Positions 12,434 to 64,000 of a DNA stretch of 64,000 nt are shown here, piece by piece; position 1 is the first letter of the stretch, and every line of letters begins with the position of its first letter. The position numbers were made by a program, and so were the translations under genes. The DNA lies in assembly GCA_029718625.1 (NCBI GenBank), contig CM056385.1:21890924-21954923 (forward strand). The letters are read 5' to 3'. Below the pieces are notes generated by a model. That model was not told the origin of the DNA and ran no database searches. It saw only the letters and a list, made by a program, of their open reading frames with translations. This stretch comes from Synaphobranchus kaupii. Its lineage: Eukaryota; Chordata; Actinopteri; Anguilliformes; Synaphobranchidae.

Positions 12434-12495
12434 ACCATGGCTGGTTTCTTCCTCCAAATCATTGTCATCTCTATTAATATCACAGATGATGAAAT

Positions 12496-12592: not shown

Positions 12593-12879
12593 AGTTCATC
12601 CATACTCTAACCAATTGAAAAATGTGACCGTTTATGGCCTGGGCACAGTAGAGGGTCCCTGAACCCCCCACCAACCCCTCTGTGATCACAATATCAACCC
12701 TCTTACCCCCTCCAGCAACCCCCCACCCCGATCCCGACCCCAGTTCATAAGTACCCTCCCCAAACCCCCGTCCACTGTCACAATCCCCACCACCCTCGGC
12801 CCACGATGGAAATCTTAATATAAGCTTCTTTTTTAAAAGAATACTTATTGGGGTCCCCTGGATGCCTTTCAGTCTGCGT

Positions 12880-12900
12880 GGGGGGGGGGGGGGGGGGGGG
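12880..12900 (+). repeat. Poly-G tract
   Basis: 21 consecutive G. Similar runs occur at 24695-24712, 25100-25121 and 26158-26169; their lengths are unreliable in most sequencing data. Confidence 0.9.
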
Positions 12901-13214
12901 AATCCCTGGATCAGAAAAAAGTTTATGGTGATGACATTTGAATGTGTGTGTACAGAAGGAAATTCTAAACAATGCGTGGGAACGACTGACTAATTCTTGA
13001 ATGGACTGTAGGTTTGGCTTGAGTCAAGGGTTTTCCATAAACTCAGAGATGGTATCTACATGTTTAAATGTTACCTTGTATTTTCCACACACCCATTAAT
13101 AGCTTTATTAGCTTTTTTTTTTTTTCTTACTAGTACATATACACATTCCTTTCCAAGAACCATGATGGCATGATGATGAATCATCAGCCTTAACGTAAAG
13201 GGTGTTGCACTTAC

Positions 13215-13292
13215 AAATTTCTCCAGTGAAGAGGTGAGCAACGAGTTCTCACCGATTGTGAAAGATAAGCTGCCGTCGGTGTTGAAGATCAC
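13215..13292 (-). CDS. Candidate orphan exon, minus strand
   Basis: 78 nt (26 codons, phase 0), bounded on the minus strand by a good acceptor (ttattacag at 13293-13301) and a consensus donor (gtaagt at 13209-13214). It would encode a peptide starting VIFNTDGSLSFTIGE and ending SSLEKF. I do not recognise the protein and see no partner exon nearby. It could be a real exon of an unidentified minus-strand gene, a transposon remnant, or chance. Confidence 0.25.
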
Positions 13293-13300
13293 CTGTAATA

Positions 13301-14929
13301 ACCCATGTTAGGAAGCCTGATTCCGGGGAGGTGTCCAAATGACTCATTCTGTTTAGCGGGCAAATCTTGGGAAATGGCTTAACGGCTACGCGACGCAACG
13401 GAAATGTGTTCCCGCGTTTGAAGTGGCCTCATTTCACTTTAAACCGATGTGCTGCCGAAACTACAGCCGACATGTGCTTTTAAATAAAAGTTGCAAAAGC
13501 AGCCACAAATCAGACCTCGAAAGCCAATACCGTGGCCTATATACGAGTGCTAATCATGGAAATCCCACGTGGATTTAATTAACAGTATTAAACAGGCCCG
13601 CCCCTCCGTATACGCAGATCACGCACTGTGCTTAGGGCACTAGCTCAGCTGGGGCGGGACCAAGTCAGCTCAGCTGCCGTTAAATTTGCGCAGGCTGCTG
13701 AATTTTCTTATTGAATGGGATGAATAAACAATGTAATCCTCAAACACATCATCAGAGCCACAAGCGTTAGAAAATCAGGATGGTGGTGATCAGATGATGC
13801 AGACTAGTGCTACTGCTTCATTTCACTTTCCTTTAATGTGCCTTATAGCCTAGGCTACTTGTATTTACGGTTTCTATTGGATTCTATTCGGGGTTTGGCT
13901 GAATCTAAAATGTAGGCTATCCAATGTTAGCAAGCGTATTGGTCATTAGGCTACAACAGACAGTGTCTCAAAACCAGTGATTGTGAAGTATTAAAAGCAT
14001 ATTGTATCGACCTATATATATTATTGAGAACTATTGCCCGTGTAGCCTATCCAACTGAAAATACAATCATGTAGGCTAAGCTATGTTTAATGATTTTAAA
14101 ACGCCCGCTTCACATTCCATTTGAGGCGGACGATGTCGCTGGAGTTCCATTCATAAACGAAACGCTCACTATATAATTGCGGCGCTATTTTTACGGTGTG
14201 CCAACCTCTGTGCCAAGTTGATCTTTTACCTGCCTAGGGGACTACAGATGAAGACTAGCTTACGAGCTAACTCTGGCATTGTACCCATTGTTACTTTTTG
14301 CGGATATGTTGATGACTGTGCTGTCCCTTTTAAATTATTATTATTTTATTTTTTTTAAAGAGACTGTTAAGCACCACTGGTGACATTCTCTTTCAGGTTT
14401 AATTGATGTATGAAAGCAAATGTATAGTCTGTTTTCCTGGTGCAATTTAACAAACCATACGCTAAATCTCAGCATAAGATTCCATATATTTTCATTAAAG
14501 CTTACTAACGAGAAGGCTCTGGCTGTTGCGTACTCACGCCTCTTTTCAACTACCATCTATTAGGCCTTTGGTTTTAATTTGATAAAGCCATGCATGACAA
14601 CTTTGCTGCAGTCCTCCTAAAATGCTAATACAGTGGACACAATTATCACGCTACTGGGCGTTGAGAAGACTAAACTATTTGTGCCATCGCGTGAATTTAC
14701 AAAGAAAATAATTTAATATGCATGTTTTCATTTCACACATGCTGAAATGTTCTATTGAAAATAGAAAATAGTCTATGTATTTGAACAAGGAATTGAATTG
14801 TTTTATTTATTTTACTTCTTTACTTTCGGGATTCGGCCGAATCTTAACTGGTGGATTCGGGATTCGGCCTTACCCTAAAATATGGATTCAGTTCATCCCT
14901 AAAATCAACTGTTAGGTACATGAAGAAGC
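13301..14929. other. Non-coding repeat-rich stretch
   Basis: No gene seen. Two short segments with the attcgg/ccgaatc theme (13880-13920, 14828-14900) look like fragments of one inverted-repeat element family. Confidence 0.4.
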
Positions 14930-15175
14930 AAGAACACACTGGTGAGCTCAGCAATAACAAACAATTTGCTAGACCACTATAGGAAGGCCACTATAGTGGC
15001 TGACCGAAGAATGCTTTCAATTGTGAAGGAAAAACCCTGCAATATGCAAACCACTGGTAAGCCTCAAGAACAAAACGGCCAGGTGGGAAAACTGGAACAA
15101 ACTCTTACGGACAGATGAGATGTGTATTACCTGTACCAAAGTGATAGAAAGGAACAAGTGTGTAGAAAAAAAGGG
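14930..15175 (+). pseudogene. Tc1-like transposase remnant
   Basis: Short decayed match to the middle of a Tc1 transposase, including a cacggacagatgagat-like WTDE region near 15108-15121, with many stops. The second copy of the 100 bp dispersed repeat follows. Confidence 0.5.
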
Positions 15176-15190
15176 AACTGCTGAATTTCT

Positions 15191-15293
15191 TAGAGATGTG
15201 AACCGCAGACTTCCTTTTTCCATGTATTTGGCTGTAGCTGTGTGAAGTATGCAGCAGCGATGTATTCCACTTAGTATGCAGTCACAGCAATGA
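15191..15293 (+). repeat. Dispersed ~100 bp repeat, copy 2
   Basis: Direct copy of 12496-12592. A run of 12 C begins at 15311, just after it. Confidence 0.6.
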
Positions 15294-15550
15294 TCCATGA
15301 TCCAAAGCCACCCCCCCCCCCCACACATGATTCATAACAACAATACCAAATATGGAGTTTCTAAGTGCTACCATTGTTCAGTAGGTTGTCCATTTCACAA
15401 GCAACCCCCACCCAGTTTCACCTGCAACTATTCCGACCAAAGTGTGGCACATTGGACAACACCTTTTCATATTTTCTTAAATTAAAAAAAGAAAATCTAA
15501 AAATACATGAATGAAAGATGAAAAGGTTCTGGTGACTCTGTCTCTTGCAG

Positions 15551-39333
<23,783 letters not shown>

Positions 39334-42384: not shown

Positions 42385-42453
42385 TGCGTCAGCATTTGTG
42401 AATTTGCATTTATAAAAAATAGAGAGATAGCGCCTTTGCCCAACATATAAATA
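42385..42453 (+). promoter_or_regulatory. il4/13 core promoter with MAF-like and GATA motifs
   Basis: TATA box tataaata at 42446-42453, 61 bp before the ATG. Upstream are a WGATAR site agatag (42425-42430) and tgcgtcagca (42385-42394), which contains the gtcagca half-site bound by MAF proteins. A ggaaaa NFAT-like core lies at 42221-42226. In mammals GATA3, c-MAF and NFAT drive IL4/IL13 in Th2 cells; use here is inferred from motifs only. Confidence 0.5.
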
Positions 42454-42513
42454 GTGTGGATTTTCTCATGTGAAGCCAGTCTCGCTCCAGCCCTCGGCCA
42501 AGCCACCATCAAC

Positions 42514-42657
42514 ATGAAGATCTTGCTTTTCTTTCCTTTCCTTTCGGCTCTGGTGCTAGTTAGCGCCGTACCTGCTCGCCATCCACCTGCTCGCCCACCA
42601 CGCCTGCTCCTGGAGGAGATGGTGATAACCCTGAACCGCATTGAGAAGCGTCCTACG
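42514..42657 (+). CDS. il4/13a: il4/13a exon 1
   Basis: 48 codons; signal peptide of about 18 residues, then a proline-rich start (VPARHPPARPP) and helix A (LLLEEMVITLNRIEKRPT). Donor gtaaga. Confidence 0.9.
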
Positions 42658-44254
42658 GTAAGACTGGGTGAAGTTACGCCCATATGGTGTGTCTGTACAT
42701 GCAAGTGGAACTCTGCTTCCTATCATTGTCTAAGTTTGGGATGCCCTTGCAAGCTAAAGAATGTTCCGATTTATTCCCTCTCCCAGGATGTCGGACACAC
42801 GCTAATAGCGGATGTCATTGACGTGCACAACTGCAAGGTAAAGTATATGTGTCTCAACATGGTGTCTTCAGAATGATAGAATGATTATTGATAGCAATGG
42901 AATATACTGTATATAAATGGACAGGTTGACGCAGTCTGCAAATTTCTTGTGAATATACAAGTTTGTTAGTTTTATATATATATATATTATATATATATAT
43001 ATAGGCTATATACATACAGTTGCACTCAAAATTATTCGACCCCCCAATAACCCATAACCCATGTTTTTTGAATTTTTTTGCAAATGTATTAAAAAAAACA
43101 AATCTCTCATGTGCATAAGTATTCAACCCCTTTGCTTTAATGTATTTTTAAAGTATCATATTTCATATTTGGTCGCATATCCTTTGCATTCTGTTACTTC
43201 CTGAAGTCTGTGACCCATGATCAACATCAAAAGACTCGATATCTTATTTGCAGGTACTGTTACAAGCGATACTATAATCTCTCTGCATTTGAATGGATGA
43301 AATATGATACTTTAAAAATACATTAAAGCAAAGGGTATGAATACTTATGCACATGAGAGATTTCAGTTTTAGATTTTTAATACATTTGCAAAAATGTCTA
43401 AAAACATGTTTTCACTGTCATTATGGGTTATTGAGTGTAGATTGATGGGCAAAAATTGTATCCATTTAAAAGTAAATCTACAACACAATAAAGTGTGCAA
43501 AAAGTGAAGGGGGTTGAATAATTTTGAGTGCAACTGTATATATACAGTTGAAGTCGGAAGTTTACATACACTTAGGTTGAAGTCATTAAAACTAATTTTT
43601 AACCACTCCACAGATTTCATGTTAGCAAACTAGTGTTGGCAAGTCAGTTAGGACATCTACTTTGTGCATGACACAAGTAATTTTTCCAACAATTGTTTAC
43701 AGATTATTTCACTTTTAATTCACTATATCACAATTCCAGTGGGTCAGAAGTTTACATACATTAAGTTGACTGTGCCTTTAAATTAAAAAAATAAGTTAGA
43801 AGAAATCCTTCAAGTTATCCATCCATATCTACTGTATTTCTGGGAGCAGAGTGATGATTTAAGGCTTGTTTGATACGTCAGACCCTTGATGACTTAGATC
43901 AATTTAGCCAACCATGTGTTTCCATACTGTTCCAGTGTAATTTACAGCTAAATCTATTCCCACCCCCCAATTCCCATAGAGATCCATTCAAATGCAGAGA
44001 CGTTGTAGTATCGCTTGTAAGAGTACCAGAAAATAAGATATCAAGAGTCTTTTGATGTTGTTGGATCACAGACATCAGGAAGTCATGGCATGCAAAGGAT
44101 ATGCGACCAAATATTAAAAGTTTAAAGGCTAACTGACTTGCCAACACTATAGTTTGCAAACATGAAATCTGCGGAGTGGTTAAAAATGAGTTTTAATGAC
44201 TTTGACCAAAGTGTATGTAAACTTCCGACTTCAACTGTATGTGTATATATATAC

Positions 44255-44316
<62 letters not shown>

Positions 44317-47090
44317 ACAGGTGACAAATTAAAAGAAAAACTCCTATAGTGTGGGGGTCCTGTGGCTCTGTTAAGCTGTGGGGGGCATTTTCTTGGCATG
44401 GTTTGGATCCACTTTGAGGGAAGGGGTCACTGCAAATCAATTAAAGTTATTCTGAGTGATCTCCTTTATCCTGTGATGAAACATTTCTATCCTGATGGGA
44501 GTGGTCTTTTCCAGGATGACAAAGCCCCCATCCACAGGGCACGAGGGGTCACTGAATGGTTTGCAGTGACCCTTCCCTCTAAGGCAGTGGTTCTCAACCC
44601 TGGTCCTGGGGACCCCCTGTGTATGCTGGTTTTCGTTCCAACCACAATTGCAAAACCAGAATTTTAACAAGCTGTTATTTTTTCTTAATTAGGTGTTTTT
44701 ATTGTATAGAGAGAACACTTTAAACTCTTTACTCTCTTAAGCCACGTTATGTTAGCAATAGCTATGCATGCTTTGAAGAAAAAAAAATCCCATGTTCGTT
44801 ATGCTTATTGTGTTATATTGCAAACAATTACAAAGAAGAGGTAATAACTTTTTTCCTTAAACTTGTTAATACAATGCAGGTTTGGCTCGTTATCATTTGC
44901 TTTGTCTTTGAATTCTTCATTATTTACCAAACAGTTAGTTTTAGTGGCCATGTGTCCACAATTTCACCAATTATGAGCCAATTGCTTCACCTCAGTCTTT
45001 AATTTGATCAGTTAAAACATTTTTTACCTCCTTTTAATTGTTTACAATACAGCACAATGTGAATATTGGACTTTTATTCTTCATGGCATGCATAGCTATT
45101 ACTAACATAATGTGGCTTAAGAATGTAAATAATCCCTCTAAACATTAAAAACACCTAATTAAGAAAAATTAACAGCTTGTTAAAATTCAAGTATTGCAAT
45201 TGTGGTTGGAACGAAAACCAGCATACACAGAGGGTCCCCAGGACCAGGGTTGAGAACCACTGCTCTAAGGGGACAAGTGGACCATGCCAGGAAAATGCCC
45301 CCCACAGCATAACAGAGCCACCGGACCCCCTCACTGTGGGGGTTTTTCCTTAGATTTGTCACCTGTCTGCATATGTATATATATATTATTTAATTTTTTT
45401 TACCTTTCTTCACTAAACAGAGGGAAGATTTCTGCAGAGTGGAGAAAGTTTTGTCTAACATGGTCAAAGAGTTCAAAGAAAAGGGAATAATTGTAAGACA
45501 GCTGAAGGAATACAATAAGGACTTTAAGGTAAGTAACTATTTGCTCCATAATACAAGATCATAGTTGTTCTTTTGTCAGAAAAAGGAAGCCATCTTAAAA
45601 GTTTAAGTGTTTTTAACTAATTCAGTGCCGCGGGCGACTTTAGTCGACAAACATACGAACGGTCTGAAGTGTCAAGGGCGACTGAAGTCGACAAGTTTTT
45701 ATTTTTTATCTTTACTCTGCTACACCAGTAAAGAATTCTGGATTTGAGTCGGGAAAAATTAAACGATAACCAATTTACAATTACGTTCTTTTACCGTCTT
45801 TTTTTAAACTTATTTATTTATTTTTTTAAACATGGTTCTCGATGGAAAGTTTAATTTATTTATCCCATTTTTTTTTTTTAAACCCTCATGTCTAACCATC
45901 TATACCAACTTTGGGGCGTGGGAATAACGCGTCCCCGTCAACACGTTTCTGTGCCAGTGACCAAGAAAAAAAAGAAATTGAACACAATCAAGTGGACAAT
46001 ATAACAAACTAGGCTACTGCTATGCTACTGTCTCAGTCACGGGAGAACATTACTCCCCTAGCTTTCAGTTGTTCCATATCGTCTGGTATACGTTTGAATC
46101 ACGGACAGTAGCCTACCATTAATTCGTTTTATAATATCCCTTTCCCAACTTATATTTAATAATTCTCTGATTTCCACTTATGTCCAGTTATTTCCCATAT
46201 CTCTTCCAGTGACCATCGTTTTGTTGATTTAGAATTAGTCCCCCACACCACAGATTTTAGCCTACGTTATTTTTGCCTCAGGATAAATGTTTCTGTTTGA
46301 AACGGTTGATACAAAGTAACTCACGTGGACAACTCATTTCTACATGTCTATACAAATGACCAGTGATTATGTTTATTGTTCATTTTTACATATCTATAGT
46401 TGTGCAAGAGCTGATTTTTATGGAATACTGTTTTCACTATTATTACTCAGCACCAATGTAAGAGTCATGTTAACCAAACTAAGCACTGAAAATAATATTT
46501 CCATTAATGTTGTTTGACATTGTTCAAATAGTGAACTGAACCAGAAGGTGTGTTATTTAGTGCCATCTATCCTCATTAACAAAACAATTATGTTGGAATA
46601 GGTAAAATAATGTGTTTTATTAGAAGTTTGCACATTGACAGGATCAATCTAAAAATTTAGAATGTTGGCAGCCATATTGGCTTGGCACTGCTGAGGCTTA
46701 GTGTTCACTCTGGCATTGAATGAGTTAAGGACGCATTGATGTGTCACTCAGGATGCAACAGCTCTTTATTGGACAATTTTGCTGATGGTTTTATTGCTGG
46801 AGTTTTGAACTAGTGTTGTTTGTGGAGGCGATTAAGGAATGCAAGACAAACTTGACACATGATGCTGATGAAGGGGACGGTGACCTGATACTGTAAAACC
46901 TTTGCAGACCCCATAAAAGCTGTGCAATGGCGGTCGCAGTCAGATACGGTTCCGCCTCCCGCTGGATGCTAACCGTTATGCTGCATCTCTCTTTCAGGTA
47001 AACTGCCCTGTTGTAGAAAACAAAGAGATAGAGCTGAAGAAGCTTCTGCACCACCTCCGTATCTGTGCTCAGAAGAAGTACGCCCAGTAA
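42514..47090 (+). CDS. il4/13a: Interleukin-4/13 (type-2 cytokine), four exons
   Basis: Secreted four-helix cytokine of the IL-4/IL-13 family, acting through IL-4R/IL-13R-type receptors and STAT6 in type-2 immunity. Exons 42514-42657, 42787-42837, 45421-45528 and 46998-47090 are all phase 0, as in mammalian IL4 and IL13, and encode 131 residues. The start ATG follows ccaccatcaac and opens a signal peptide (MKILLFFPFLSALVLVSA). Cysteines are C64, C70, C104 and C124. Helix motifs match human IL-4: REDFCRVEKVLSNMV in exon 3 and VNCPVVENKEIELKKLLHHL, then KKYAQ, in exon 4. Position directly downstream of rad50 on the same strand agrees with the vertebrate Th2 locus. The 'a' paralogue is chosen because the rad50-linked teleost copy carries that name. 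It could be another short helical cytokine, but locus, exon phases and cysteines all fit. Confidence 0.9.
42787..42837 (+). CDS. il4/13a: il4/13a exon 2
   Basis: 17 codons, DVGHTLIADVIDVHNCK; acceptor ctctcccag, donor gtaaag. Contributes C64. Very short exon 2 is typical of IL4 and IL13 genes. Confidence 0.88.
42974..43004 (+). repeat. (TA)n tract
   Basis: TA-rich tract next to two Tc1-type insertions, both at TA targets. Confidence 0.8.
43017..43536. mobile_element. Non-autonomous Tc1/mariner element 1, intron 2
   Basis: 520 bp with TIRs cagttgcactcaaaattatt (43017) and its mirror ending caactg (43536), flanked by TA on both sides. Internal sequence is itself partly palindromic (atgtgcataagtattcaacc region). 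No transposase. Confidence 0.9.
43545..44237. mobile_element. Non-autonomous Tc1/mariner element 2, intron 2
   Basis: 693 bp with TIRs cagttgaagtcggaagttta (43545) and its mirror ending 44237, TA on both sides. This is a very common fish Tc1 end sequence; the transposase region is deleted. Confidence 0.92.
44238..44312 (+). repeat. (TA)n(AC)n microsatellite
   Basis: Joins elements 2 and 3 within intron 2. Confidence 0.9.
44316..45367. mobile_element. Element 3, Tc1-like MITE split by a nested hAT MITE
   Basis: Ends gacaggtgacaaatt (44316) and aatttgtcacctgtc-type mirror (45353-45367). The next inward segments also mirror each other (ctgtggggggcattttc against gaaaatgccccccacag). The same family recurs at 47663. 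It is interrupted by 44585-45262. Confidence 0.8.
44585..45262. mobile_element. hAT-type MITE with 8 bp target duplication
   Basis: 678 bp, TIR cagtggttctcaaccctggt and its mirror ending caaccactg-type (45262), flanked by a perfect 8 bp duplication ctctaagg (44577-44584; 45263-45270). Long inverted arms, no ORF. A half copy lies at 49940-50071. Confidence 0.92.
45421..45528 (+). CDS. il4/13a: il4/13a exon 3
   Basis: 36 codons; acceptor cactaaacag, donor gtaagt. REDFCRVEKVLSNMVKEFKE to YNKDFK. The FCR-x-x-x-VL pattern is the helix B/C motif shared with mammalian IL-4. Contributes C70. Confidence 0.9.
45613..46730. mobile_element. Possible piggyBac-like MITE, intron 3
   Basis: Bounded by taactaattcagtgccgcg on the left and ggcattgaatgagttaa on the right (46712-46728), an imperfect inverted pair near TTAA-like sites. 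Two copies of a small palindromic motif (gggcgact..agtcgacaa) lie near the left end. Boundaries tentative. Confidence 0.4.
46998..47090 (+). CDS. il4/13a: il4/13a exon 4
   Basis: 30 codons plus TAA (47088-47090); acceptor ctctttcag. VNCPVVENKEIELKKLLHHL, then RICAQKKYAQ: helix D with C104 and C124. Confidence 0.92.
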   Translation, partial: VNCPVVENKEIELKKLLHHLRICAQKKYAQ

Positions 47091-47145
47091 CACCATGACC
47101 TAAGACCCACCTCCACGGAACATTCTCCTGCTTCTCTGGGATTCC

Positions 47146-47547
47146 TTTATTTATTCACATACTATGTTGAATTTGTGTTAGATTGAGTTTGAGTAACTAT
47201 TTTTGTACGTATTTATCAAGACTTGTCATTAAAATGTTGTGTTCAAAAGTTTAATACTTTTTTTTTTTTTTTTTTTACAAATGGTGTGATAAAATTGTCA
47301 CTGTCATTGAAGATGACATTGAAGTCACAATTCGTTTCTGAAATTTTGCATTGTTCTGTGGGAAAATAAATTGAGAAATCCTGCTCTTAATACTTTTCCA
47401 GAGGTTGCATGGCATTCTGTAACAAACGTTTACATGTTAATGTACATCTTAAATCTACATCCATGAGTAATTCTACATCCCTTAGTGCAAATTATTTCTC
47501 AGTATGAATTTGCAATGAAATTCTTTTGTATTGAAAATTAAAATAAA
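47146..47547 (+). promoter_or_regulatory. il4/13a 3'UTR: AU-rich elements and poly(A) signals
   Basis: ATTTA-type motifs at 47147-47155 and 47210-47215 suggest the rapid mRNA turnover usual for cytokines. Candidate poly(A) signals: attaaa 47228-47233, aataaa 47365-47370, aataaa 47542-47547. Which is used is unknown. Confidence 0.5.
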
Positions 47548-47662
47548 GTTTCACAGTTCTGAATAGTTTTGCTATGATTTATGTACGTTGTTGTTGTACA
47601 TTGAGCAGCATTGTTGTTGTTTTTTTAAACAGCTGCAATTTTTATATATTACACATTATATA

Positions 47663-48346: not shown

Positions 48347-48523
48347 CAGGGTTGCCAGATGCTTAAATCTGGGTTGTTTTGGATGGCAGACCTGGCCTAC
48401 CCGAAACAAAAACCCAGGGACGCCAGATCGAAAAATCCCCTATTTGAGGGCAAAAAAAACTCCCAAAGATCCCTTGTTTGGGGGAATTTTTAAATAAAAC
48501 TTTTCTAAAATCTGGCAACCCTG
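48347..48523. mobile_element. Small MITE, TIR cagggttgccagat
   Basis: cagggttgccagatgc at 48347 is mirrored by tctggcaaccctg ending 48523. The matching position near 61085-61096 (tacattttcag) looks like a site lacking the insert. Confidence 0.75.
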
Positions 48524-48529
48524 AAAATG

Positions 48530-49207
48530 TATGCTTCAATTAATTCTCATTAAAAAGTTCAGATTACCCACAGTGCAGTTTGTGTATTATAAAATGCAGA
48601 TGAGTTTTATCAGCAGCCATACCACCGTGCAATCTGCTCCTGCTGAATGGCCGAAGCTAAGCAGGTGTGGGCTTGGTTAGTACTTGGATGAGAGACCTGA
48701 GTTGTTGCTGGAAGTGATGTTGGTGGGCCAGTAGAGGGCAATCATCTCTAGTCAAATCTTCCCTTTGGTCAAATATGCCCCAATAGAGTGATCACCCTCA
48801 AACACATCAAGGCCACTGTGGCATAACGGTAGAGTCTTGGTCTCTGGAAGGTGAGCTTGAGGGTTCAAACCTCATTCTATATCTTTATTCCTCATATTTT
48901 TATGATCTCAGCTTCTTCACTCCACTTCAGAGCTCACAGAACAGCTAAGGATACTTTGGCACAACGGTATTGTCTTTGTCTGTGGACACGGCACTTCAGG
49001 GTTCAAACCTCACTCTTTACCTACATTTCTGTGGTCTCATTTTCTGTCCATGATTGTGGCGAGAATTCAGTAAACTTTCATTGTCCCCGTAGGGCAATTG
49101 AAATGGCAGCAAAAGCACATAGGTACATAAAGGTATAAAAAACAACAGAAGGGACAGGCTTTTTGAATGTTCTTTCTCCTCTCTTTTTGTATCTTCATGA
49201 ATTCACT
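48530..49207 (+). mobile_element. Composite 5S-like/tRNA-like module, + orientation
   Basis: Contains a 5S rRNA-like unit (48616-48697), a tRNA-like unit (48811-48880, with tggcataacggtagag as box A and gggttcaaac as box B) and a second tRNA-like unit (48947-49015, box B ggttcaaacc). A tail with gtccccgtagggcaattgaa and ggtacataaaggtataaaa follows. The same order in reverse orientation occurs at 54730-55430 and 60370-61090. Confidence 0.75.
48616..48697 (+). repeat. 5S rRNA-derived sequence
   Basis: gccataccacc, gaagctaagcagg and ggttagtacttggatgagag are the diagnostic 5S rRNA blocks in order, with divergence between them. This fits a 5S-derived SINE head rather than a functional gene, since the 3' stem sequence is absent. 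Confidence 0.8.
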
Positions 49208-49939
49208 CAGGGTTCGAGTTATAATCTTAGCTTTGTGGGGGTCTCTAAAATAACTAACGTTAGGGGCGGAGATAAATAAATAAATAATAGCCTAACGGGT
49301 GCGCTTTCCAGAGAGAGAGAGAGACTTCACTGCTCATTACGTGGTCCAACACTTTCACACACCATCATCATCATTACAGAACAGACAAGGCAAAGCACAT
49401 CCTTTGCATAATGTAGCAGCTATCCCTAGCAATGAACGTTGAAGACCCCGTTGAAGGCTTGTAGACCCCGTCGGCAGCAGCGGCCTTTTTTTCGGCGGCA
49501 TGGTAGCTAGTCTATACTACTACTTTCTATTCAATATATAAAACTGGCTGATACATGTAGTGGCTTCTTCTTCCAAATGGGTTCGAAGTGAACGTTCGCG
49601 GCTCGCGTGCTCTCAACAAGCATAGTTTGCGGCGCGCAATATTCTACTGCGCACCATGGTGGCTTGGTGGTGAAGTGCAGCCTCTTTGGCCATACTGTCA
49701 TTCATGAGAGAATATGGGTCGTAGTTCTTTTGGAAAACATGTTTCTTTTAGCCTATTTATCTCTTTAACATAAATAATACTCATTACATTGAAAAATGCA
49801 TTATTTGTGATTAAAATAATGGTTGTTGGTAATGTATTAGCGACCCCCACAGATGTATGATTTTACTGCTTTCATGGGAGCTCAGACCCCTCCTTATGGG
49901 AGCTCAGCTCCCACTGGCTCCCACATAACTCGAACCCTG
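49208..49939. mobile_element. hAT-like MITE, TIR cagggttcgagttat
   Basis: cagggttcgagttat at 49208-49222 is exactly mirrored by ataactcgaaccctg at 49925-49939. Flanks do not match as a target duplication: the left flank is the composite module and the right flank is a hAT MITE half, so one side has been rearranged. Confidence 0.8.
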
Positions 49940-52967: not shown

Positions 52968-53399
52968 TATTTCTTCATATATTTATAAATATGCACAGTG
53001 AAAATGGTGACGTTAAATCCCCCCATGAAGTTTAATTAGAGTTTGAAGTTGGCCATCTCATAGCCTTGTATATAACAGTACTACCACATTTTGACCACAA
53101 GATGGTGCCATTTTAACAGATAGTTGAAATGGCACCATCTTGTGGTCAAAATGTGGTAGGTACTATATGTGATATACATCTCATATCCTTGTATTTCACA
53201 TAGTACTACCACATTTTGACCACAAGATGGTGCCATTTTAACAGATAGTTGAAATGGCACCATCTTGTGGTCAAAATGTGGTAGTACTGTTATATACAAG
53301 GCTATGAGATGGCCAACTTCAAACTCTAATTAAACTTCATGGGGGGATTTAACCATCACCATTTTCACTGTGCATATTTATAAATATATGAAGAAATAA
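52968..53399. repeat. Fold-back element, unit A (two inner hairpins)
   Basis: Outer arms (tttcttcatatatttataaa and catgaagtttaattagagtt) are mirrored at 53285-53399. Between them two hairpins (53082-53159; 53203-53286) each contain accacaagatggtgccattt and its reverse complement around a short spacer. Confidence 0.9.
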
Positions 53400-54399
53400 T
53401 AATCCAAGTCACAGTTTCTCATGTGTTTTCCCGCATAATTTATGCTAACAGATATTGGTGATTTTAAACATGTTTCAACCTCTCTTTTTCACTCCAGCTT
53501 TTCTGCAGCCCCGCAAGCAATTGTGGCCCCGGGTTTATCTGTGTGCAAACCCAGTGCGTACGTTCTGAAGTGTGCCGGTGTCCCCAGGTGCAGTGGTATG
53601 TATATTTTATGTCTCAGACTCAGGTCCCAGGGCCTCGTTGTCACGACTTTGGCCTGGTTCATATCTCAACACTTGTGAATTGTAGTATCAGAATCCATGT
53701 CAAGAACTAGGCCCGTTACAGGTTCTCGAGAATTTACGGCAGATACAAGTCTTAAGGCCTCAGAGTGCGACCAGCAGCTGCAACAAGCCTTAAGACCGTC
53801 TGGAATCTGCCCTGGGTGGATCCATGACCCAAAACCTCTGAAATCAGTGCCGTCCTAAGAACTCTGTGTTGCTCATATGCTCGACCTAAGTCCCAAGACA
53901 TTTGTCATTCAGCCCAGTGTGTGTACCAGTACCATGTCCTGAAATCCAATCCATAGGTACGCTACCCAGCACCAAGGCATATGCATCAGGGAAGCACTGT
54001 GGGCGTCTAACAGATGAGCTGACCATGCGGAGGAGAAGCAGGAAGTCCCCAGACGGAGGAGCTGTGTAAGTATGAGTTTTGCTTTCTTTTTGTTTTTATG
54101 CACCACATTTGGTGTAGATTAGTGTATTACTACTTACAGTCTTACATACTTCTATGCAATCAAATCAATTTGTTTTAACTAAAACAAACAAATTTGATTA
54201 TAGTTGTATGTGATACTGTCTGTAGTAATGCACTAATGGAGGGTGGGGCCTGGCCGAATTCTCAAACTTTTTCGCCTTACAGCCAAAAAGTTTGTGTTCC
54301 AAAAAAGTTGCATAACCCCCTGTGTTTTGCTTCCAACTTTCAGGGGGGGGCCACAACCGCCACTTCCCCTTCATTCACACCCCATTCATTACAACTCCC

Positions 54400-54492
54400 C
54401 CACCCTTGGGGACCACCGCATCCATACCACTCCCCCACCCTTGGGGACCACCGCATCCATACCACTCCCCCACCCTTGGGGACCACCAACAT
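54400..54492 (+). repeat. 36 bp repeat x3, unit A
   Basis: Unit contains ctcccccacccttggggacc and accgcatccatac; also at 60038-60131. Confidence 0.9.
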
Positions 54493-54500
54493 TGCTCAGG

Positions 54501-55355
54501 TGTGGCACTCGGGGAATCGAACCGGCAACATCGACCCACGTGAAGTGCGGTCCAACCTCCTACGCCACGGAGTCCTTTGCATTTGTGTTTTGTTTTTCTA
54601 CAAACTTAAATGGCACAATGGTACAATGGTACAATGGACAAAAGTTGTGCAAACCTGAATGGGGATTGAACCCCAGACCTTGGCGTTGCTAAACCAGAAC
54701 CATTCCTTTGAGCCACTGTAACTTGCATTTCTTTGTTGGGTTTTCCTGCAGTGAATTCATGAAGATGCAAAAAGAGAGGAGAAAGAACATTCAAAAAGCC
54801 TGTCCCTTCTGTTGTTTTTTATACCTTTATGTACCTATGTGCTTTTGCTGCCATTTCAATTGCCCTACGGGGGACAATTAAAGTTTATTGAATTTAATTG
54901 AATTCTCACCACAATCTTGGACAGAAAATGAGACCACAGAGATGTAGGTGAAGAGTGAGGTTTGAACCCTGAAGTGCTGTGTCCACAGACAAAGACAATA
55001 CCGTTTGTGCCAAAGTATCCTTAGTTGTTTTGTGAGCTCTGAAGTGGAGTGAAGAAGCTGAGATCATAAAAATATGAGGAATAAAGATAAAAAATGAGGT
55101 TTGAACCCTCAAGCTCACCTTCCAGAGTCCAAGACTCTACCGTTACGCCACAGTGGCCTTGATGTGTTTGAGGGTGATCACTCTATTGGGGCATATTTGA
55201 CCAAAGGGAAGATTTGACTAAAGAGATGATTGCCCTCTACTGGCCCACCAACATCACTTCCAGCAACAACTTAGGTCTCCCATCCAAGTACTAACCAAGC
55301 CCACACCTGCTTAGCTTTTGCCATTCAGCAGGAGCAGATCGCATGGTGGTATGGC
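54501..55355 (-). mobile_element. Cluster of tRNA-like and 5S-like units, unit A
   Basis: On the minus strand, in order: 5S-like 55355-55274, tRNA-like 55159-55095 and 55022-54957 (box B ggttcaaacc type), tRNA-like 54723-54649 (box B ggttcaatcccc) and tRNA-like 54580-54501 (box A tggcgtaggaggt, box B ggttcgattcc). The third and fourth flank a non-tRNA segment with ctacgggggacaattaaagt. None has a full cloverleaf that I can draw with confidence. Confidence 0.7.
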
Positions 55356-56125
55356 TGCTGATAAAATGCCTCTTCATTTTATAACACACAAACTGCACTG
55401 TGGGTAATCTGAAATATTTAATGAGAATGTGTATGCATGTTAGCTAACCATATGAACATAATGAACACAAAGTAGACAAGGAGGCAAATTATAAACCAAC
55501 AGCATAACATATGTAAGCTACTTTGTGAAAACCTTTGTTTCATTTAATGGGGGACTTTGAAGGATACATTTTCAGGGCTGCCAGATTTCAGAAAAAAAAG
55601 GGGGATTTCCCTCCCCCCAACAAGGTTGGAAAACAAACGAAAACGAGCTGCATTCGGATGCAGTAACCGACAGCAAACCTTTCTGTGTTCGCGTTTCCAA
55701 TTAACAATGCACAAACTAACCTATGTATGAAATTTCCTATAGCATAGTAATCACAATTTCAATCACAATTTTTCTTTAGGCAACGTGTGCATTACACACA
55801 CATTTGAGTATTTTTGTTGCATTCCTTGTTATATAAATCTAAAATAGAAACTTTCCATAATTTGTGGATACTAATCCCTTTGTTGAACATTGGTAACAAT
55901 CGCATTCGTTTAGGCTATCGGCTATCATCTTTTCCTGTTGTGGTGAAGAAATAGCATGAGCTGTCCAGATTATTGAAATAATTTGATTCAAAACTAGTGT
56001 TCCGCTCACACGCTCTGGTGGCTATGCAAATAAAGTTTGAACATAATGTTTTTTTAATTCAAAATCACTCTTTAATGAATGCGGAGGAGACCATTCATCA
56101 TTAATTTACAACCTCCCTTAATAAT

Positions 56126-56346
56126 AGGCATTTAGCAGATGCTCTTATCCAGAGCGACTTACACAACTTTTTAGCATTTTTTTTTTTTTTTACATATTAT
56201 CCATTCAGACAGCTGGATATATACTGAAGCGATTCAGGTTAAGTACCTTGCTCAAGGGTACAACGGCAGTGTCCAACCGGGGAATCGAACCTGCAACCTT
56301 TCGGTTACAAGGCCAGTTCCTTAACCATTGTACTACACTGCCGCCC
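56126..56346 (-). mobile_element. tRNA-derived SINE, unit A
   Basis: Minus strand starts gggcggcagtgtagtacaat (box A) and gcaggttcgattccccgg (box B), then ccttgagcaaggtacttaac, and closes with agtcgctctggataagagca and tctgctaaatgcctatta. This is a common fish SINE with an L2-type tail. Confidence 0.85.
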
Positions 56347-56461
56347 TGCATATCTGTCTGCATGGTGCAGGTATTAAGAATACACTCTCCATGCTGTATG
56401 GTTGGTGTCTGCACTCATCCCCGTTCCCCAGTAGAGGTGCGCAACTTTCTCCCTTTAATTA

Positions 56462-56719
56462 CCCAGATAGCAAGCGAACGTTGAATCGACGTGGATTCAA
56501 CATCAATTTGCTCATCGAAATCACGTTGAAAGCTAATGGAGTGAGTCGGTGATGGCAACAAACATTAAAACTTTTAAATATCATGTAAATATTTAACCTT
56601 GATTATTCAATATTTGTCGGTATTCTGACAACGTGATCTCGATGAGCAAATTGATGTTGAATCAACGTCGGAATTACACATTGAATCTACGTCGATTCAA
56701 CGTTCGCTTGCTATCTGGG
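56462..56719. mobile_element. MITE, TIR cccagatagcaagcgaacgt
   Basis: Perfect terminal inverted repeats of more than 30 bp (cccagatagcaagcgaacgt and its mirror ending at 56719); inner arms around tgctcatcgaaatcacg also pair. 258 bp, no ORF. Confidence 0.9.
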
Positions 56720-57540
56720 AGGTGTTCACCAATACACTTTCTGCACTGTAACATCTCTATCTGTCACCTTCTATGCTTCCCCCTGACTGAATAAACATGA
56801 ATAAAAAATTAATAAGGAGAATGGACAGCCCACTCTCCTATTCAAAAGTAATCACAATTTCAATTTCCAACACTGTTCACTGCAATCTTTGCTTTCAAAC
56901 ATTCAAACCATACATTCAAAGTCATATGGACAACACAGTTTTGCGCTAAAAGTTTATTAACGTTAACACACACAGCACGATAGCCTACAGAACTGCTTGC
57001 TAAGCTGCTAAATTAGCTGATAGCAACATACGATCGAATAGGAATCAACTGCTTAAATATCAGGAACATTAACTGACATATAGTATATAGTTCTGTGGAT
57101 ATGACTCACTCTTGTACCATAGTCAGAATCTCTGCCATAGTTATGCGAATAAACGCTCTATGTATTTTTACTTCCGGGTTACTTGCTGAAATTGTTGGAT
57201 GAGTGCACAATTCTGCAGGTGAGTGTGCTCCTGAATTCCCTCAACAACACCCCGGAAATAAGGGGTTCGTTTTGGTAATTTAAGTGTCCCCATTTGTGAG
57301 AAAAATCGCACACTCAAAAGCTTTTTGACGAAGTGGACTCAAATATGCGTACCCAAAAGTGTGTAGGGGTCGTATTCGGACACAGCCAAAATGAAACTCC
57401 AGTTAATATGGTTTGATCAACCGTGACGCAATGTTTATGTTTTTTGAAAGCGCTTATGGGATAGCTATGTTGTCAATAACAAGACGCGATTACTGAAGCC
57501 GACGAGACCTTTGACTTCATTTCCCGAATAAACCATTGTC

Positions 57541-58502
57541 GAAAGGCCATGTGGTGTAGGCTACATCTGCAACTCGTAAACATTCTTCCACCGTAGCTAC
57601 AGTGCTACAGAAAGGTAATTACTTATTTTGTAGCAAGACAAAGTTAACTATGTAATGTCTACCAGCTAACTCCAACTTTTGAAAATAGCACTTCGTATGC
57701 TTCGCGTGTGATACCTAATTATATATCCCTATATTTAACCAAGCTTGCATCGATAAATGGAACTAGTTAGCTGGCTTTGTAGAGAACACTAGCTAGACAG
57801 GGACCATTGAATGAACAAGCCAGCTAATGTTAGCAAGATCGTTTAAGCAGGCATGCAACTTGACGCGCCCCCCGCCCCGCTAATGTGTTAGCTAATGTTT
57901 TATGGCTTGTCACGTTGCTAAATATACCGAAAGTCTTTTTATATGGTTACCATTTACAAAGTAACATTATACTCCATTATACATGTATCTTGTTGCTAGT
58001 TATCTGTCAAATTATTTAAACCTAGAAAAAAAAAAAATCGGATTATTTTGAGTAAGTTCACTAGTAAAATGCAACACTGCGTAACTTCCTATTTAAACAC
58101 TCGTAATTTACAATTACAGTAACAATGGTATGGATGTTGAGTTTTTTCCACACCTATGAATACATTTACCTTGACTCGACTGCATGGACTTCTTGTCTGG
58201 AGCAAGATGCTTTATTCATTCTTTCTCATAAGCCACTATCAGTCTAGCTCACTAAATATGATGATAGATATGTTTGCTTTTTATGACTGTCCCTCAGATT
58301 TATATAACTAGGTTAGTAATCAAGTTTACGATGATCCACTTTAGTTAACAGCAGCAATAGCTAGCTTTCTGCCTTGGCTGTTTTCTTTTTGTATTTTTCT
58401 GTCATATCAGGTGCTATTCCAGATGTCAAAATATTTCAGATTTATAAGTACATGTGGTCATATGTAAGTACATACTGGCTATAGAAAGTTTGCACATCCT
58501 TT
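57541..58502. other. Spacer between tandem units
   Basis: Unique within the window. Begins just after a possible promoter/5'UTR-like stretch (see findings); no exon with coding content seen. Confidence 0.4.
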
Positions 58503-59049
58503 CATAAATATGCACAGTGAAAATGGTGACGTTAAATCCCCCCATGAAGTTTAATTAGAGTTTGAAGTCGGTCATCTCATATCCTTGTATATAACAGTAC
58601 TACCACATTTTGACCACAAGATGGTGCCATTTTAACAGATAGTTGAAATGGCACCATCTTGTGGTCAAAATGTGGTAGTACTATATGTGATATACATCTC
58701 GTATCCTTGTATTTCACATAGCACTACCACATTTTGACCACAAGATGGTGCCATTTTAACAGATAGTTGAAATGGCACCATCTTGTGGTCAAAATGTGGT
58801 AGTACTATATGTGATATAAATCTGATATCCTTGTATTTCACATAGTACTACCACATTTTGACCACAAGATGGTGCCATTTCAACTATCTGTTAAAATGGC
58901 ACCATCTTGTGGTCAAAATGTTGGTACTACTGTTATACTGTTATATACAAGGATATGAGATGGCCAACTTCAAACTCATTAAATTTCATGGGGGGATTTA
59001 ACCATCACCATTTTCACTGTGCATATTTATAAATATATGAAGAAATAAT
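58503..59049. repeat. Fold-back element, unit B (three inner hairpins)
   Basis: Same as unit A but with three hairpins (58598-58681; 58722-58805; 58846-58930). The third has its centre inverted relative to the others. The left outer arm is truncated, starting at cataaatatgcacagtg. Confidence 0.9.
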
Positions 59050-60037
59050 AATCCAAGTCACAGCTTCTCATGTGTTTTCCCGCATAATTTATGCTAACAG
59101 ATATTGGTGATTTTAAACATGTTTCAACCTCTCTTTTTCACTCCAGCTTTTCTGCAGTCCCGCAAGCAATTGTGGCCCCGGTTTATCTGTGTGCAAACCC
59201 AGTGCGTACGTTCTGAAGTGTCCCGGTGTCCCCGGTGCAGTGGTATGTACATTTTATGTCTCAGACTCAGGTCCCAGGGCCTCGTTGTCACGACTTTGGC
59301 CTGGTTCATATCTCAACACTTGTGAATTGTAGTATCAGAATCCATGTCAAGAACTAGGCCCGTTACAGGTCTCGAGAATTTACGGCAGATGCAAGTCTTA
59401 AGGCCTCAGAGTGCGACCAGCAGCTGCAACAAGCCTTAAGACCATCTGGAATCTGCCCTGGGCGGATCCATCACCCAAAACCTCTGAAATCAGTGCCGTC
59501 CTAAGAGCTCTGTGTTGCTCATATGCTCGACCTAAGTCCCAAGACATTTGTCATTCAGCCCAGTGTGTGTACCAGTACCATGTCCTGAAATCCAATCCAT
59601 AGGTACGCTACCCAGCACCAAGGCATATGCATCAGGGAAGCACTGTGGGCGTCTAACAGATGAGCTGACCATGCGGAGGAGAAGCAGGAAGTCCCCAGAC
59701 GGAGGAGCTGTGTAAGTATGAGTTTTGCTTTCTTTTTGTTTTTATGCACCACATTTGGTGTAGATTAGTGTATTACTACTTACAGTCTTACATACTTCTA
59801 TGCAATCAAATCAATTTGTTTTAACTAAAACAAACTAATTTGATTATAGTTGTATGTGATACTGTCTGTAGTAATGCACTAATGGAGGGGTGGGGCCTGG
59901 CCGAATTCTCAACTTTTTCGCCTTACAGCCAAACCGTTTCTGCTCCAAAAAAGTTCCATAACCCCTGCATTGTGCTCCCAACTTTCAGGGGGGGCCACAA
60001 CCGCCACTTCCCCTTCATTCACACCCCATTCATACAA

Positions 60038-60131
60038 CTCCCCCACCCTTGGGGACCACCGCATCCATACGACTCCCCCACCCTTGGGGACCACCGCATC
60101 CATACGACTCCCCCACCCTTGGGGACCACCA
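60038..60131 (+). repeat. 36 bp repeat x3, unit B
   Basis: Copy of 54400-54492. Confidence 0.9.
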
Positions 60132-60144
60132 ACATTGCTCAGGT

Positions 60145-60996
60145 GTGGCACTCGGGGAATCGAACCAGCGACTTCTATCCACGTGAAGTGCGGTCCAACC
60201 TCCTACGCCACGGAGTCCTTCGCATTTTTGGTTTGTTTTTCTACAAACTTAAATGGCACAATGGTACAATGGTACAATGGACAAAAGTTGTGCAAACCTG
60301 AATGGGGATTGAACCCCAGACCTTGGCGTTGCTAAACCAGAACCATTCCTTTGAGCCGCTGTAACTTACACTTCTTTGTTGGGTTTTCCTGCAGTGAATT
60401 CATGAAGATGCAAAAAGAGAGGAGAAAGAACATTCAAAAAGCCTGTCCCTTCTGTTGTTTTTTATACCTTTATGTACCTATGTGCTTTTGCTGCCATTTC
60501 AATTGCCCTACGGGGACAATTAAAGTTTATTGAATTTAATTGAATTCTCGCCACAATCTTGGACAGAAAATGAGACCGCAGAAATGTAGGGGAAGAGTGA
60601 GGTTTGAACCCTGAAGTGCTGTGTCCACAGACAAAGACAATACCGTTGTGCCAAAGTATCCTTAGCTGTTCTGTGAGCTCTGAAGTGGAGTGAAGAAGCT
60701 GAGATCATAAAAATATGAGGAATAAAGATCTAGAATGAGGTTTGAACCCTCAAGCTCACCTTCCAGAGACCAAGACTCTACCGTTATGCCACAGTGGCCT
60801 TGATGTGTTTGAGGGTGATCACTCTATTGGGGCATATTTGACCAAAGGGAAGATTTGACTAAAGAAATGATTGCCCTCTACTGGCCCACCAACATCTCTT
60901 CCAGCAACAACTCAGGTCTCCCATCCAAGTACTAACCAAGCCCACACCTGCTCAGCTTCAGCCATTCAGCAGGAGCAGATTGCATGGTGGTATGGC
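60145..60996 (-). mobile_element. Cluster of tRNA-like and 5S-like units, unit B
   Basis: Same order as unit A: 5S-like 60996-60915; tRNA-like 60799-60736, 60662-60600, 60368-60294 and 60225-60145. Confidence 0.7.
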
Positions 60997-61516
60997 TGCT
61001 GATAAAACTCGTCTGCATTTTACAATACACAAACTGCACTGTGCGTAATCTGAACTTTTTAATGAGAATTAATTGAAGCGTACATTTTCAGATATAATTC
61101 AAATACCATACTCTTACATTCATGGTTTGCAATAATACATGAAATGCATTGTGGGTAATCAGAATGGATTAATTGGAAAACACATACATTAGGTACCCAG
61201 AAATAAACCTGTTTGCTGATTCATTTGAACTTCTTTTTGACTCTTTAGTTACTTATTTAGTTACTTATCTGTTTCTAAACAGACATACTTACAAAGCATT
61301 TGCATGGCATGTTGACACATATATTTACATACACAAAACATTGCGTTAGCACATAAAAAGCATTGAGAGTAAACGGTGTCAATCGAAATATGCACACATT
61401 CACAGATGTGCGATAGTAGATGAAATGCATTATAGGTACTCAGTCAATTAGTCAGAATAGCTCCCTCTGGTGGACATGGACAATTTGGCTCCCTCTGGTG
61501 GACATGAATAATTAAT

Positions 61517-61690
61517 AATAATAATGCCTGGCATTTATATAGCGTCTTTCTCACACTCAAAGCACTTTACAATGATGAGGGGTGACTTGCCTCAACCACC
61601 ACCAATGTACAGCACTCACCTGGATGATGCAACGGCAGCCATTTTGCACCAGTATGCTCACCAGACGGAGAGGGAGAGAACAATTTGTTG
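61517..61690 (-). repeat. Interspersed teleost repeat, unit B only
   Basis: gcatttatatagcgtctttc, cactcaaagcactttacaat and caccaccaatgtacagc are the hallmark of a repeat frequent in fish genomes; absent from unit A. Confidence 0.6.
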
Positions 61691-62411
61691 CCAATTAAAC
61701 TGGGGGACGATTAGGTAGCAGATGGAAAAAGCGAGGTTGGGAATTTAGAATTTGGTGTTCTGCAAGCCATTGATTTTGATGTAAACTGGTTAAGATCCTT
61801 TCTGATTAATGGCGATGTGAATTATATTTTACATTGTGGCTATTATGTTACATTGTGGCTATAAATGTTCAAATCCCCACTTTGACCACCTGTTGTGATT
61901 TTATTCATTAAAGCAGGCTATTATTGGACAAAGTTCACTGTCGCCATGATTCCTTCCTTTCCCATGTCCTAAATGCATAAGGGTGATAACCTAGTTAGCC
62001 TACTATTTTTCTGTTTTCCTTCAGTAATTGTCCCTATAATTAGGCTATAACACAGTTTTTTCTTTAGGCAACGTGTGCATTACACATACATTTGAGTATT
62101 TTTGTTGTATTCCTTGTTATATAAATCTAAAATAGAAACTTTCCATAATTTGTGGATACTAATCCCTTTGTTGAATATTGGTAACAATCGCATTCGTTTA
62201 GGCTATCGGCTATCATCTTTTCCTGTTGTGGTGAAGAAATAGCATGAGCTGTCCAGATTATTGAAATAATTTGATTCAAAACTAGTGTTTCGCTCAACTC
62301 CGCTCACACGCTCTGGTGCTATGCAAATAAAGTTTGAACATAATATTTTTTAAATTCAAAATCACTCTTTAATGAATGCGGAGGAGACCATTCATCATTA
62401 ATTTACAACCT

Positions 62412-62635
62412 CCCTTAATTACATTATAGGCATTTAGCAGATGCTCTTATCCAGACTTTTGAGCATTTTTTTTGTTTACATATTATCCATTTAGACAGCT
62501 GGATATATACTGAAGTGATTCAGGTTAAGTACCTTGCTCAAGGGTACAACGGCAGTGTCCAATCTGGGAATCGAACCTGCAACCTTTCGGTCACAAGGCC
62601 AGTTCCTTAACCATTATACTACACTGCCGCCCTGC
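62412..62635 (-). mobile_element. tRNA-derived SINE, unit B
   Basis: Copy of 56126-56346 with a small deletion near ccagacttttgagc. Confidence 0.85.
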
Positions 62636-62749
62636 ATATCTGTCTGCAAGGTGCAGGTATTAAGAATACACTCTCCATGCTGTATGGTTGGTGTCTGCAC
62701 TCATCCCCGTTCCCCAGTAGAGGTGCGCAACTTTCTCCCTTTAATTACC

Positions 62750-62945
62750 CAGATAGTGCGGAATTCCGACGTGGATTCAACATCAATTTGCTCATCGAAA
62801 TCACGTTGAAAGCTAATGGAGTGAGTCAGTGATGGCAACAAACATTAAAACTTTTAAATATCATGTAAATATTTAACCTTGATTATTCAATATTTGTCGG
62901 TATTCTGACAACGTGATCTCGATGAGCAAATTGATGTTGAATCAA
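62750..62945. mobile_element. MITE of 56462 family, both ends damaged
   Basis: Inner arms retained. The left TIR has lost the caagcgaacgttgaat part and the right TIR is replaced by tcaattcaatc and an A-run, where the relocated block begins. Confidence 0.85.
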
Positions 62946-64000
62946 TTCAATCAAAAAAAAAAAGTCAATCAAAATGCCTCTTCATTTTATAACACACAAA
63001 CTGCACTGTGGGTAATCTGAAATATTTAATGAGAATGTGTATGCATGTTAGCTAACCATATGAACATAATGAACACAAAGTAGACAAGGAGGCAAATTAT
63101 AAACCAACAGCATAACATATGTAAGCTACTTTGTGAAAACCTTTGTTTCATTTAATGGGGGAGTTTTTTTCCCCCCAACAAGGTTGGAAAACGAACGAAA
63201 ACGAGCTGCATTTGGATGCAGTAACCGACAGCAAGCCTTTCTGTGTTCGCGTTTCCAATTAACAATGCACAAAGTAACCTATGGATGAAATTTCCTATAG
63301 CATAGTAATCACAATTTCAATTTCCAACATTGTTCACTGCAATCTTTGCTTTCAAACATTCAAACCATACATTCAAAGTCATATGGACAACACAGTTTTG
63401 CGCTAAAAGTTTATTAACGTTAACACACACAGCACGATAGCCTACAGAACTGCTTGCTAAGCTGCTAAATTAGCTGATAGCAACATACGATCGAATAGGA
63501 ATCAACTGCTTAAATATCAGGAATATTAACTGACATATAGTATATAGTTCTGTGGATATGACTCACTCTTGTACCATAGTCAGTAATCTCTGCCATAGTT
63601 ATGCGAATAAACGCTCTATGTATATTACGTTTTTACTTCCGGGTTACTTGCTGAAATTGTTGGATGAGTGCACAATTCTGCAGGCGAGTGTGCTCCTGAA
63701 TTCCCTCAACAACACCCCGGAAATAAGGGGTTCGTTTTGGTAATTTAAGTGCCCCCATTTGTGAGAAAAATCGCACACTCAAAAGCTTTTTTGACGAAGT
63801 GGACGCGTACCCAAAAGTGTGTAGGGGTCGTATTCGGACACAGCCAAAATGAAACTCCAGTTAACATGGTTTGATCAACCGTGACGCAATGTTATTATGT
63901 TTTTTTGAAAGCGCTTATGGGATATGTTGTCAATAACAAGACGCGATTACTGAAGCCGACGAGACCTTTGACTTCATTTCCCGAATAAACCATTGTCGAA

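What the first reader, a model, noticed from the sequence alone, without database searches (positions are those of the whole stretch)
42514..47090. A complete four-exon il4/13 cytokine gene hidden beside rad50
Seen: four phase-0 exons with consensus splice sites, a signal peptide, four cysteines, and FCR...VL and NCPV motifs matching human IL-4. Known: in mammals IL13 and IL4 follow RAD50 in the same orientation, and teleost IL-4/13 genes are fast-evolving and easily missed. Inferred: this is the rad50-linked il4/13a. Exons 2-4 (51, 108, 93 nt) are not visible as conventional ORFs.
Basis: partly seen in the sequence, partly recalled or inferred. Interest (0 to 1): 0.8.

Follow-up and report, generated by a model that had tools for sequence, protein, structure and literature searches.

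The report
Deep-sea eel interleukin-4/13 gene
This is an ordinary but real immune-signalling gene, the eel version of interleukin-4/13, sitting where such genes normally sit beside rad50 and so far labelled only as a hypothetical protein.

Summary
Four exons (42514-42657, 42787-42837, 45421-45528, 46998-47090, +) with GT-AG borders and phase-0 introns give one 131-residue product with a hydrophobic start and four cysteines. It matches Pfam IL4 above cut-off (E 2.5e-6); a reversal and 8 shuffles do not. An IL-4 profile built without it, run over 2805 open frames of the window, ranks the frame of exon 4 first (E 6e-5) and that of exon 3 second (E 0.46, weak). The same protein is already public, letter for letter, as 'hypothetical protein SKAU_G00267070' of the deep-sea eel Synaphobranchus kaupii: only the name is missing. 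rad50 precedes it in the same orientation. A mild surprise: the product is IL-4-like (37.3 bits) but not IL-13-like (3.1 bits, within shuffles). Structure prediction was too weak to help; expression, a tree and the rest of the genome could not be tested.

The parts
15548..39330 (+). rad50: exons covering most of human residues 295-1312, in order; upstream neighbour in the same orientation
   Evidence: tblastn with recalled human RAD50; two of the stretches matched solved RAD50 chains best, E 2.1e-34 and 1.7e-22
42446..42452 (+). TATA-box-like motif TATAAAT upstream of the start codon (by sequence only)
   Evidence: motif scan; transcription start not tested
42514..42657 (+). il4/13 exon 1: start codon, signal-like segment, helix A (E35 aligns with the helix-A glutamate of human IL-4)
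42787..42837 (+). il4/13 exon 2: A-B loop, Cys64
45421..45528 (+). il4/13 exon 3: helices B and C, Cys70 in FCR, R91 aligned with the helix-C arginine of human IL-4
   Evidence: its frame ranks second of 2805 with an IL-4 profile, E 0.46
46998..47090 (+). il4/13 exon 4: C-D loop with NCPV (Cys104), helix D with Cys124, stop codon
   Evidence: its frame ranks first of 2805 with an IL-4 profile, E 6e-5
47091..47553 (+). probable 3' UTR with ATTTA at 47149 and 47211 and AATAAA at 47365 and 47542
   Evidence: motif scan; end of transcript not tested

Best explanation
The four exons are an intact il4/13 gene of the deep-sea eel Synaphobranchus kaupii, the rad50-linked il4/13a of teleosts. It encodes a secreted short-chain cytokine of about 112-113 residues. 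Shown: exon-intron structure, IL-4 family sequence match, rad50 linkage. Inferred from the family: a four-helix fold, production by type-2 lymphoid cells, a Cys70-Cys104 bond equivalent to human Cys46-Cys99 plus a Cys64-Cys124 bond, binding of an IL-4R-alpha-type receptor through E35 and R91, and signalling through STAT6.
For: Pfam IL4 E 2.5e-6, 28.0 bits, cut-off 23, none in 9 controls. All 15 solved-structure sequences listed at E up to 10 are IL-4. Local alignment to human IL-4 (recalled) scores 81; 0 of 500 shuffles reach it. A profile of 37 IL-4 sequences without the eel gives 37.3 bits, best shuffle 6.9. Frames of exons 4 and 3 rank first and second of 2805. Identical public protein from S. 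kaupii. rad50 upstream. Four exons and phase-0 introns as published for fish il4/13. E35, C70 and C104 invariant in 32 of 32 rows of A2.
Against: No RNA evidence. Best solved-structure E-value is only 0.011. Identity to mammalian IL-4 is 18-29% over the 31 rows chosen. Intron 1 is short and open in frame, so its removal rests on family layout and the public model. AlphaFold models are of low confidence (pLDDT 43.2 and 58.5) and the fold searches listed no IL-4. No other fish il4/13 appeared in the protein searches, so the 'a' in il4/13a rests on rad50 linkage, not on a tree. Confidence lowered from 0.95 to 0.92 on re-reading, because of the open intron 1.
Confidence: 0.92

Rival explanations
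1. It is an il4/13 gene, but not the 3R copy called il4/13a: a relocated il4/13b, or one of several copies.
For: Published trees do not group A and B copies across lineages (PMC4905449 section 17), and sea bass has adjacent A1 and A2 (PMC5440397 passages).
Against: It lies about 3.2 kb after the rad50 coding end, same orientation, which is how A is named. A recalled KIF3A motor domain finds nothing in the window, and no second il4/13 copy was seen in it.
Confidence: 0.04
2. The exon 1-2 junction is wrong or optional: intron 1 (129 nt, open in frame) is kept, giving a 174-residue product.
For: The frame 42451-42876 runs through exon 1, intron 1 and exon 2 without a stop.
Against: GT-AG borders with good consensus. 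The 43 extra residues would add six cysteines (alignment) and break the published phase-0 intron layout. The public protein lacks them.
Confidence: 0.03
3. It is a decayed il4/13 copy, no longer expressed or functional.
For: No expression evidence; repeat-rich introns and neighbourhood.
Against: All four exons open, splice sites intact, family-invariant residues kept, polyadenylation signals and ATTTA motifs present.
Confidence: 0.03
4. It is a different short-chain cytokine of the TH2 locus, such as a member of the IL-3/IL-5/GM-CSF family.
For: Gar has an IL-5 family gene at the rad50 locus (PMC4690019 section 7).
Against: No better than shuffles against human IL-5, GM-CSF and IL-2 (recalled) or the published gar IL-5famA: 114, 247, 359 and 167 of 500 shuffles reach the score. 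Of the four Pfam families listed only IL4 passes its cut-off; IL5 and IL13 are not listed.
Confidence: 0.01

Closest known systems
Teleost IL-4/13A (rad50-linked)
   Same: Four exons, three phase-0 introns, four cysteines, rad50 linkage, ATTTA motifs in the 3' region, basic predicted pI (9.39 to 9.40 by cut site; trout 7.20 and salmon 8.72 in PMC4905449 Table 1).
   Different: Shorter (131 aa; salmonid IL-4/13 142-153 aa). No N-glycosylation sequon (trout IL-4/13A also has none). Direct sequence comparison with a fish IL-4/13A was not possible.
Mammalian IL-4
   Same: Sequence match over most of the mature protein; FCR and CPV motifs, helix-A glutamate and helix-C arginine align with human IL-4.
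   Different: Lacks the human B-C insert; cysteines 64 and 124 have no human partner in the alignment.
Mammalian IL-13
   Same: Locus and gene layout; exon 3 of 108 nt falls in the 105-114 nt range given for tetrapod IL-13 (PMC4905449 section 6).
   Different: No signal beyond shuffles with an IL-13 profile (3.1 bits, best shuffle 5.7), and 0 of 62 pairwise z above 5; a weak match to the N-terminal part of human IL-13 only (5 of 500 shuffles reach it).

Membership tests
IL-4 / IL-13 / IL-4/13 cytokines | Profile match to the family above curated cut-off | tested here: met
   PF00727 28.0 bits, cut-off 23, residues 32-129, profile 5-115 of 116
IL-4 / IL-13 / IL-4/13 cytokines | Four coding exons, three phase-0 introns | tested here: met
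   as a gene model without RNA; published layout in PMC4905449 section 6
IL-4 / IL-13 / IL-4/13 cytokines | Hydrophobic signal-like N-terminus | tested here: met
   Hydropathy only; the cut after Ala18 is read by eye, no signal-peptide program was run
IL-4 / IL-13 / IL-4/13 cytokines | Short-chain four-helix fold | tested here: inconclusive
   Helices in plausible places but pLDDT 43.2 and 58.5; fold searches uninformative
IL-4 / IL-13 / IL-4/13 cytokines | Receptor binding and STAT6 signalling | not testable with these tools
   needs protein and cells
Teleost IL-4/13A | Adjacent to RAD50 | tested here: met
Teleost IL-4/13A | Separate from KIF3A, with an IL-4/13B copy elsewhere beside KIF3A | tested here: inconclusive
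   No KIF3A motor match in the window with a recalled query; the genome search did not complete
Teleost IL-4/13A | Phylogenetic placement among fish IL-4/13 | not tested
   No other fish IL-4/13 in the answers
Mammalian-type IL-13 | Match to an IL-13 profile | tested here: not met
   IL13 not among the families listed (filters drop most matches above E 0.1); 3.1 bits against best shuffle 5.7

The most novel reading that the evidence does not exclude
An elopomorph teleost has kept an IL-4/13 that is clearly IL-4-like in sequence and not IL-13-like, with the helix-A glutamate, the helix-C arginine and the FCR-CPV cysteine pair of human IL-4. That would suggest that the ancestral gene looked like IL-4 and that IL-13 is the more altered tetrapod duplicate.
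Probability: 0.25. Interest if true: 0.45.

Novelty: new member of a known kind. Interest (0 to 1): 0.25.

Why it matters
It gives a name and a checked gene model to an unnamed eel protein and adds an elopomorph to a fast-evolving cytokine family that, among bony fish in the papers seen here, is described from salmonids, cyprinids, percomorphs and gar. Its IL-4-like sequence offers a testable point on whether IL-4 or IL-13 is nearer the ancestral type-2 cytokine. It does not change what is known about the locus.

Tried and rejected

IL-5 family gene beside rad50: the published gar IL-5famA gave no convincing match in the window (best E 0.26 at 38114-38034, minus strand). This does not exclude one, since the family is very poorly conserved.

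A second il4/13 exon: an 11-residue minus-strand match to exon 4 at 24861-24829 (8 of 11, E 0.62) had nothing recognisable around it by eye; taken as chance.

Neighbours downstream: 9 selected long open frames between 48.8 and 60.4 kb gave no Pfam family at E up to 0.01 (its tenth frame lies in il4/13 intron 2). Recalled KIF3A motor, POU4F3 POU and IRF1 DNA-binding domains gave no match at E up to 1. Short exons of other genes could have been missed.

GATA and STAT motifs: one AGATAG at 42425 and one TTCN4GAA at 41561; no control was run and I give them no weight.

NCBIfam gave nothing; it is built for prokaryotes.

Literature: looked for S. kaupii or eel IL-4/13 in print. From titles and abstract starts alone I saw no paper describing one; one search found 0 papers, one search listed 10 of 23 and one search listed 10 of 20. 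Several 'anguilla' hits concern Vibrio anguillarum, and so do the passages with that word shown in PMC5440397. Most subscription papers are not held.
Full report
What is there. The four exons described are in the sequence at 42514-42657, 42787-42837, 45421-45528 and 46998-47090 on the + strand. Each is a multiple of three, all three introns are GT-AG and phase 0, and the joined frame gives 131 residues and a stop. Introns are 129, 2583 and 1469 nt, and the 3' flank carries ATTTA motifs (47149, 47211) and AATAAA signals (47365, 47542). Residues 3-18 are strongly hydrophobic; the cut after Ala18 is my reading, no signal-peptide program was available. One detail of the finding is wrong: exon 2 is visible as an ORF, because exon 1, intron 1 and exon 2 share one open frame (42451-42876).

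More than chance. The exons were picked by a reader who had IL-4 in mind, so I tested for selection. Pfam's IL4 family matches the product at E 2.5e-6 with 28.0 bits against a cut-off of 23; three other families are listed at E 0.034 to 0.062, all far below their cut-offs. The reversed protein and 8 shuffles list no IL4 at E up to 0.1 (0 of 9). Against solved structures, all 15 sequences listed at E up to 10 are IL-4, the best at E 0.011. I then took an IL-4 profile built without the eel protein and scored 2805 stop-to-stop frames of 15 codons or more on both strands: the frame of exon 4 ranked first (E 6e-5) and that of exon 3 second (E 0.46, close to the next row at 0.83); the frame of exons 1 and 2 is not among the 8 rows printed. 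So exon 4 is found without guidance, exon 3 is only suggestive alone, and the strength lies in the whole. Finally, the same 131-residue protein exists in public databases as 'hypothetical protein SKAU_G00267070' of Synaphobranchus kaupii, with a precomputed IL4 domain (1 protein at E up to 10 among 13 candidates). That names the organism, a synaphobranchid eel of the Anguilliformes, and means that the model was already predicted elsewhere.

Which cytokine. Against human IL-4 (recalled letters) the local score is 81 and 0 of 500 shuffles reach it (z 11.2); human IL-13 gives 39, reached by 5 of 500 (z 3.1); IL-2, IL-5, GM-CSF and the published gar IL-5famA are at shuffle level. For a broader test I took P0002-P0088 (90 hits with the eel itself; P0089 and P0090 dropped), kept 76 by length 125-155 and 37 after removing near-duplicates, and from the 120 listed of 133 IL-13 hits kept 96 by length 125-150 and 62 after removing near-duplicates. 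The IL-4 profile gives the eel protein 37.3 bits (best shuffle 6.9 among 195 reported of 200); the IL-13 profile gives 3.1 (best shuffle 5.7 among 193 reported of 200). Pairwise z exceeds 5 in 33 of 37 IL-4 (lowest 2.7) and in 0 of 62 IL-13 (highest 4.5). The search that gathered the IL-4 set had the eel protein in its query, but the eel is not in the set. So the eel protein is nearer to mammalian IL-4 than to mammalian IL-13; more cannot be said without fish and reptile sequences. [quoted passage not shown] Wang et al. give 16-29% identity of fish IL-4/13 to mammalian IL-4 and 15-28% to IL-13 (PMC4905449 section 17), so the 18-29% seen over 31 selected IL-4 rows is in the usual range.

Residues. 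In the alignment with human IL-4, E35 falls on E9, R91 on R88, C70 on C46 and C104 on C99 (human numbering, the human disulphides and the weight of E9 and R88 in receptor binding are recalled; a passage of PMC5440397 says that the helix-C arginine matters for IL-4R-alpha binding). E35, C70 and C104 are invariant in 32 of 32 rows of A2, R91 is not. C64 and C124 have no human partner; a C64-C124 bond is inferred only because they are left over.

Where it sits. tblastn with recalled human RAD50 finds stretches covering most of residues 295-1312, in order, on the + strand from 15548 to 39330; two of these match solved RAD50 chains best (E 2.1e-34 and 1.7e-22). The il4/13 start codon follows 3.2 kb later in the same orientation. 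No KIF3A motor match was seen with a recalled query. Published nomenclature calls the RAD50-linked teleost gene IL-4/13A and the KIF3A-linked one IL-4/13B (PMC5440397 passages), with four exons and phase-0 introns. So il4/13a is the right name by locus. A tree was not possible because no other fish IL-4/13 appeared, and the search of the rest of the genome did not complete in eight tries.

How it works. By family membership: a secreted four-helix cytokine of type-2 immunity acting through an IL-4R-alpha-type receptor and STAT6. Shown here: gene structure, family match, locus. Inferred: secretion, fold, disulphides, receptor, cell source. Rainbow trout IL-4/13A is broadly and constitutively expressed (PMC4905449 abstract), and in the four teleosts tabulated in PMC4690019 section 8 its read counts are highest in gill, so gill is the tissue to look in.

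Papers. PMC4905449: abstract and sections 5, 6 and 17 read. PMC5440397: passages. PMC4690019: passages, section 7 part 1 and section 8. PMC9465101: passages. All others: listings only.

Verdict. AlphaFold models were poor and fold searches uninformative, and there are no RNA data. What remains is solid: an ordinary, real member of a known family, already predicted but unnamed, with a modest evolutionary point in its IL-4-like sequence.

Noticed in passing
window 1-3757 and 9568-10174 against 18700-23043: Two stretches at 99.7% and 97.5% identity to one continuous region, ending at a 500-N gap (10175-10674); a rad50 stretch (residues 521-597) therefore appears twice (2201-2416 and 20900-21115). 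Looks like a haplotype copy left in the assembly, one copy holding about 5.8 kb extra (3758-9567) that reads LINE-like by eye.
   Followed up: partly
window 1-15547: No stretch for RAD50 residues 1-294 was found in the window with the recalled query; those exons may lie upstream or be lost at the gap.
   Followed up: no
window 143-973 and 18767-19672: Open frames that read like a Tc1-type transposase by eye, within the duplicated segment.
   Followed up: no
window 36128-37063: A tandem array with a unit of about 69 bp inside the rad50 region, seen as shifted self-matches.
   Followed up: no
window 53054-57543 and 58695-64000: Long direct copies at 93.5-95.8% identity downstream of the gene, with related inverted pieces at 48521-49211; perhaps a large mobile element or a tandem duplication.
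   Followed up: no
window 42838-45420: Intron 2 of il4/13 holds sequence resembling Tc1-type and palindromic transposon remnants (by eye).
   Followed up: no
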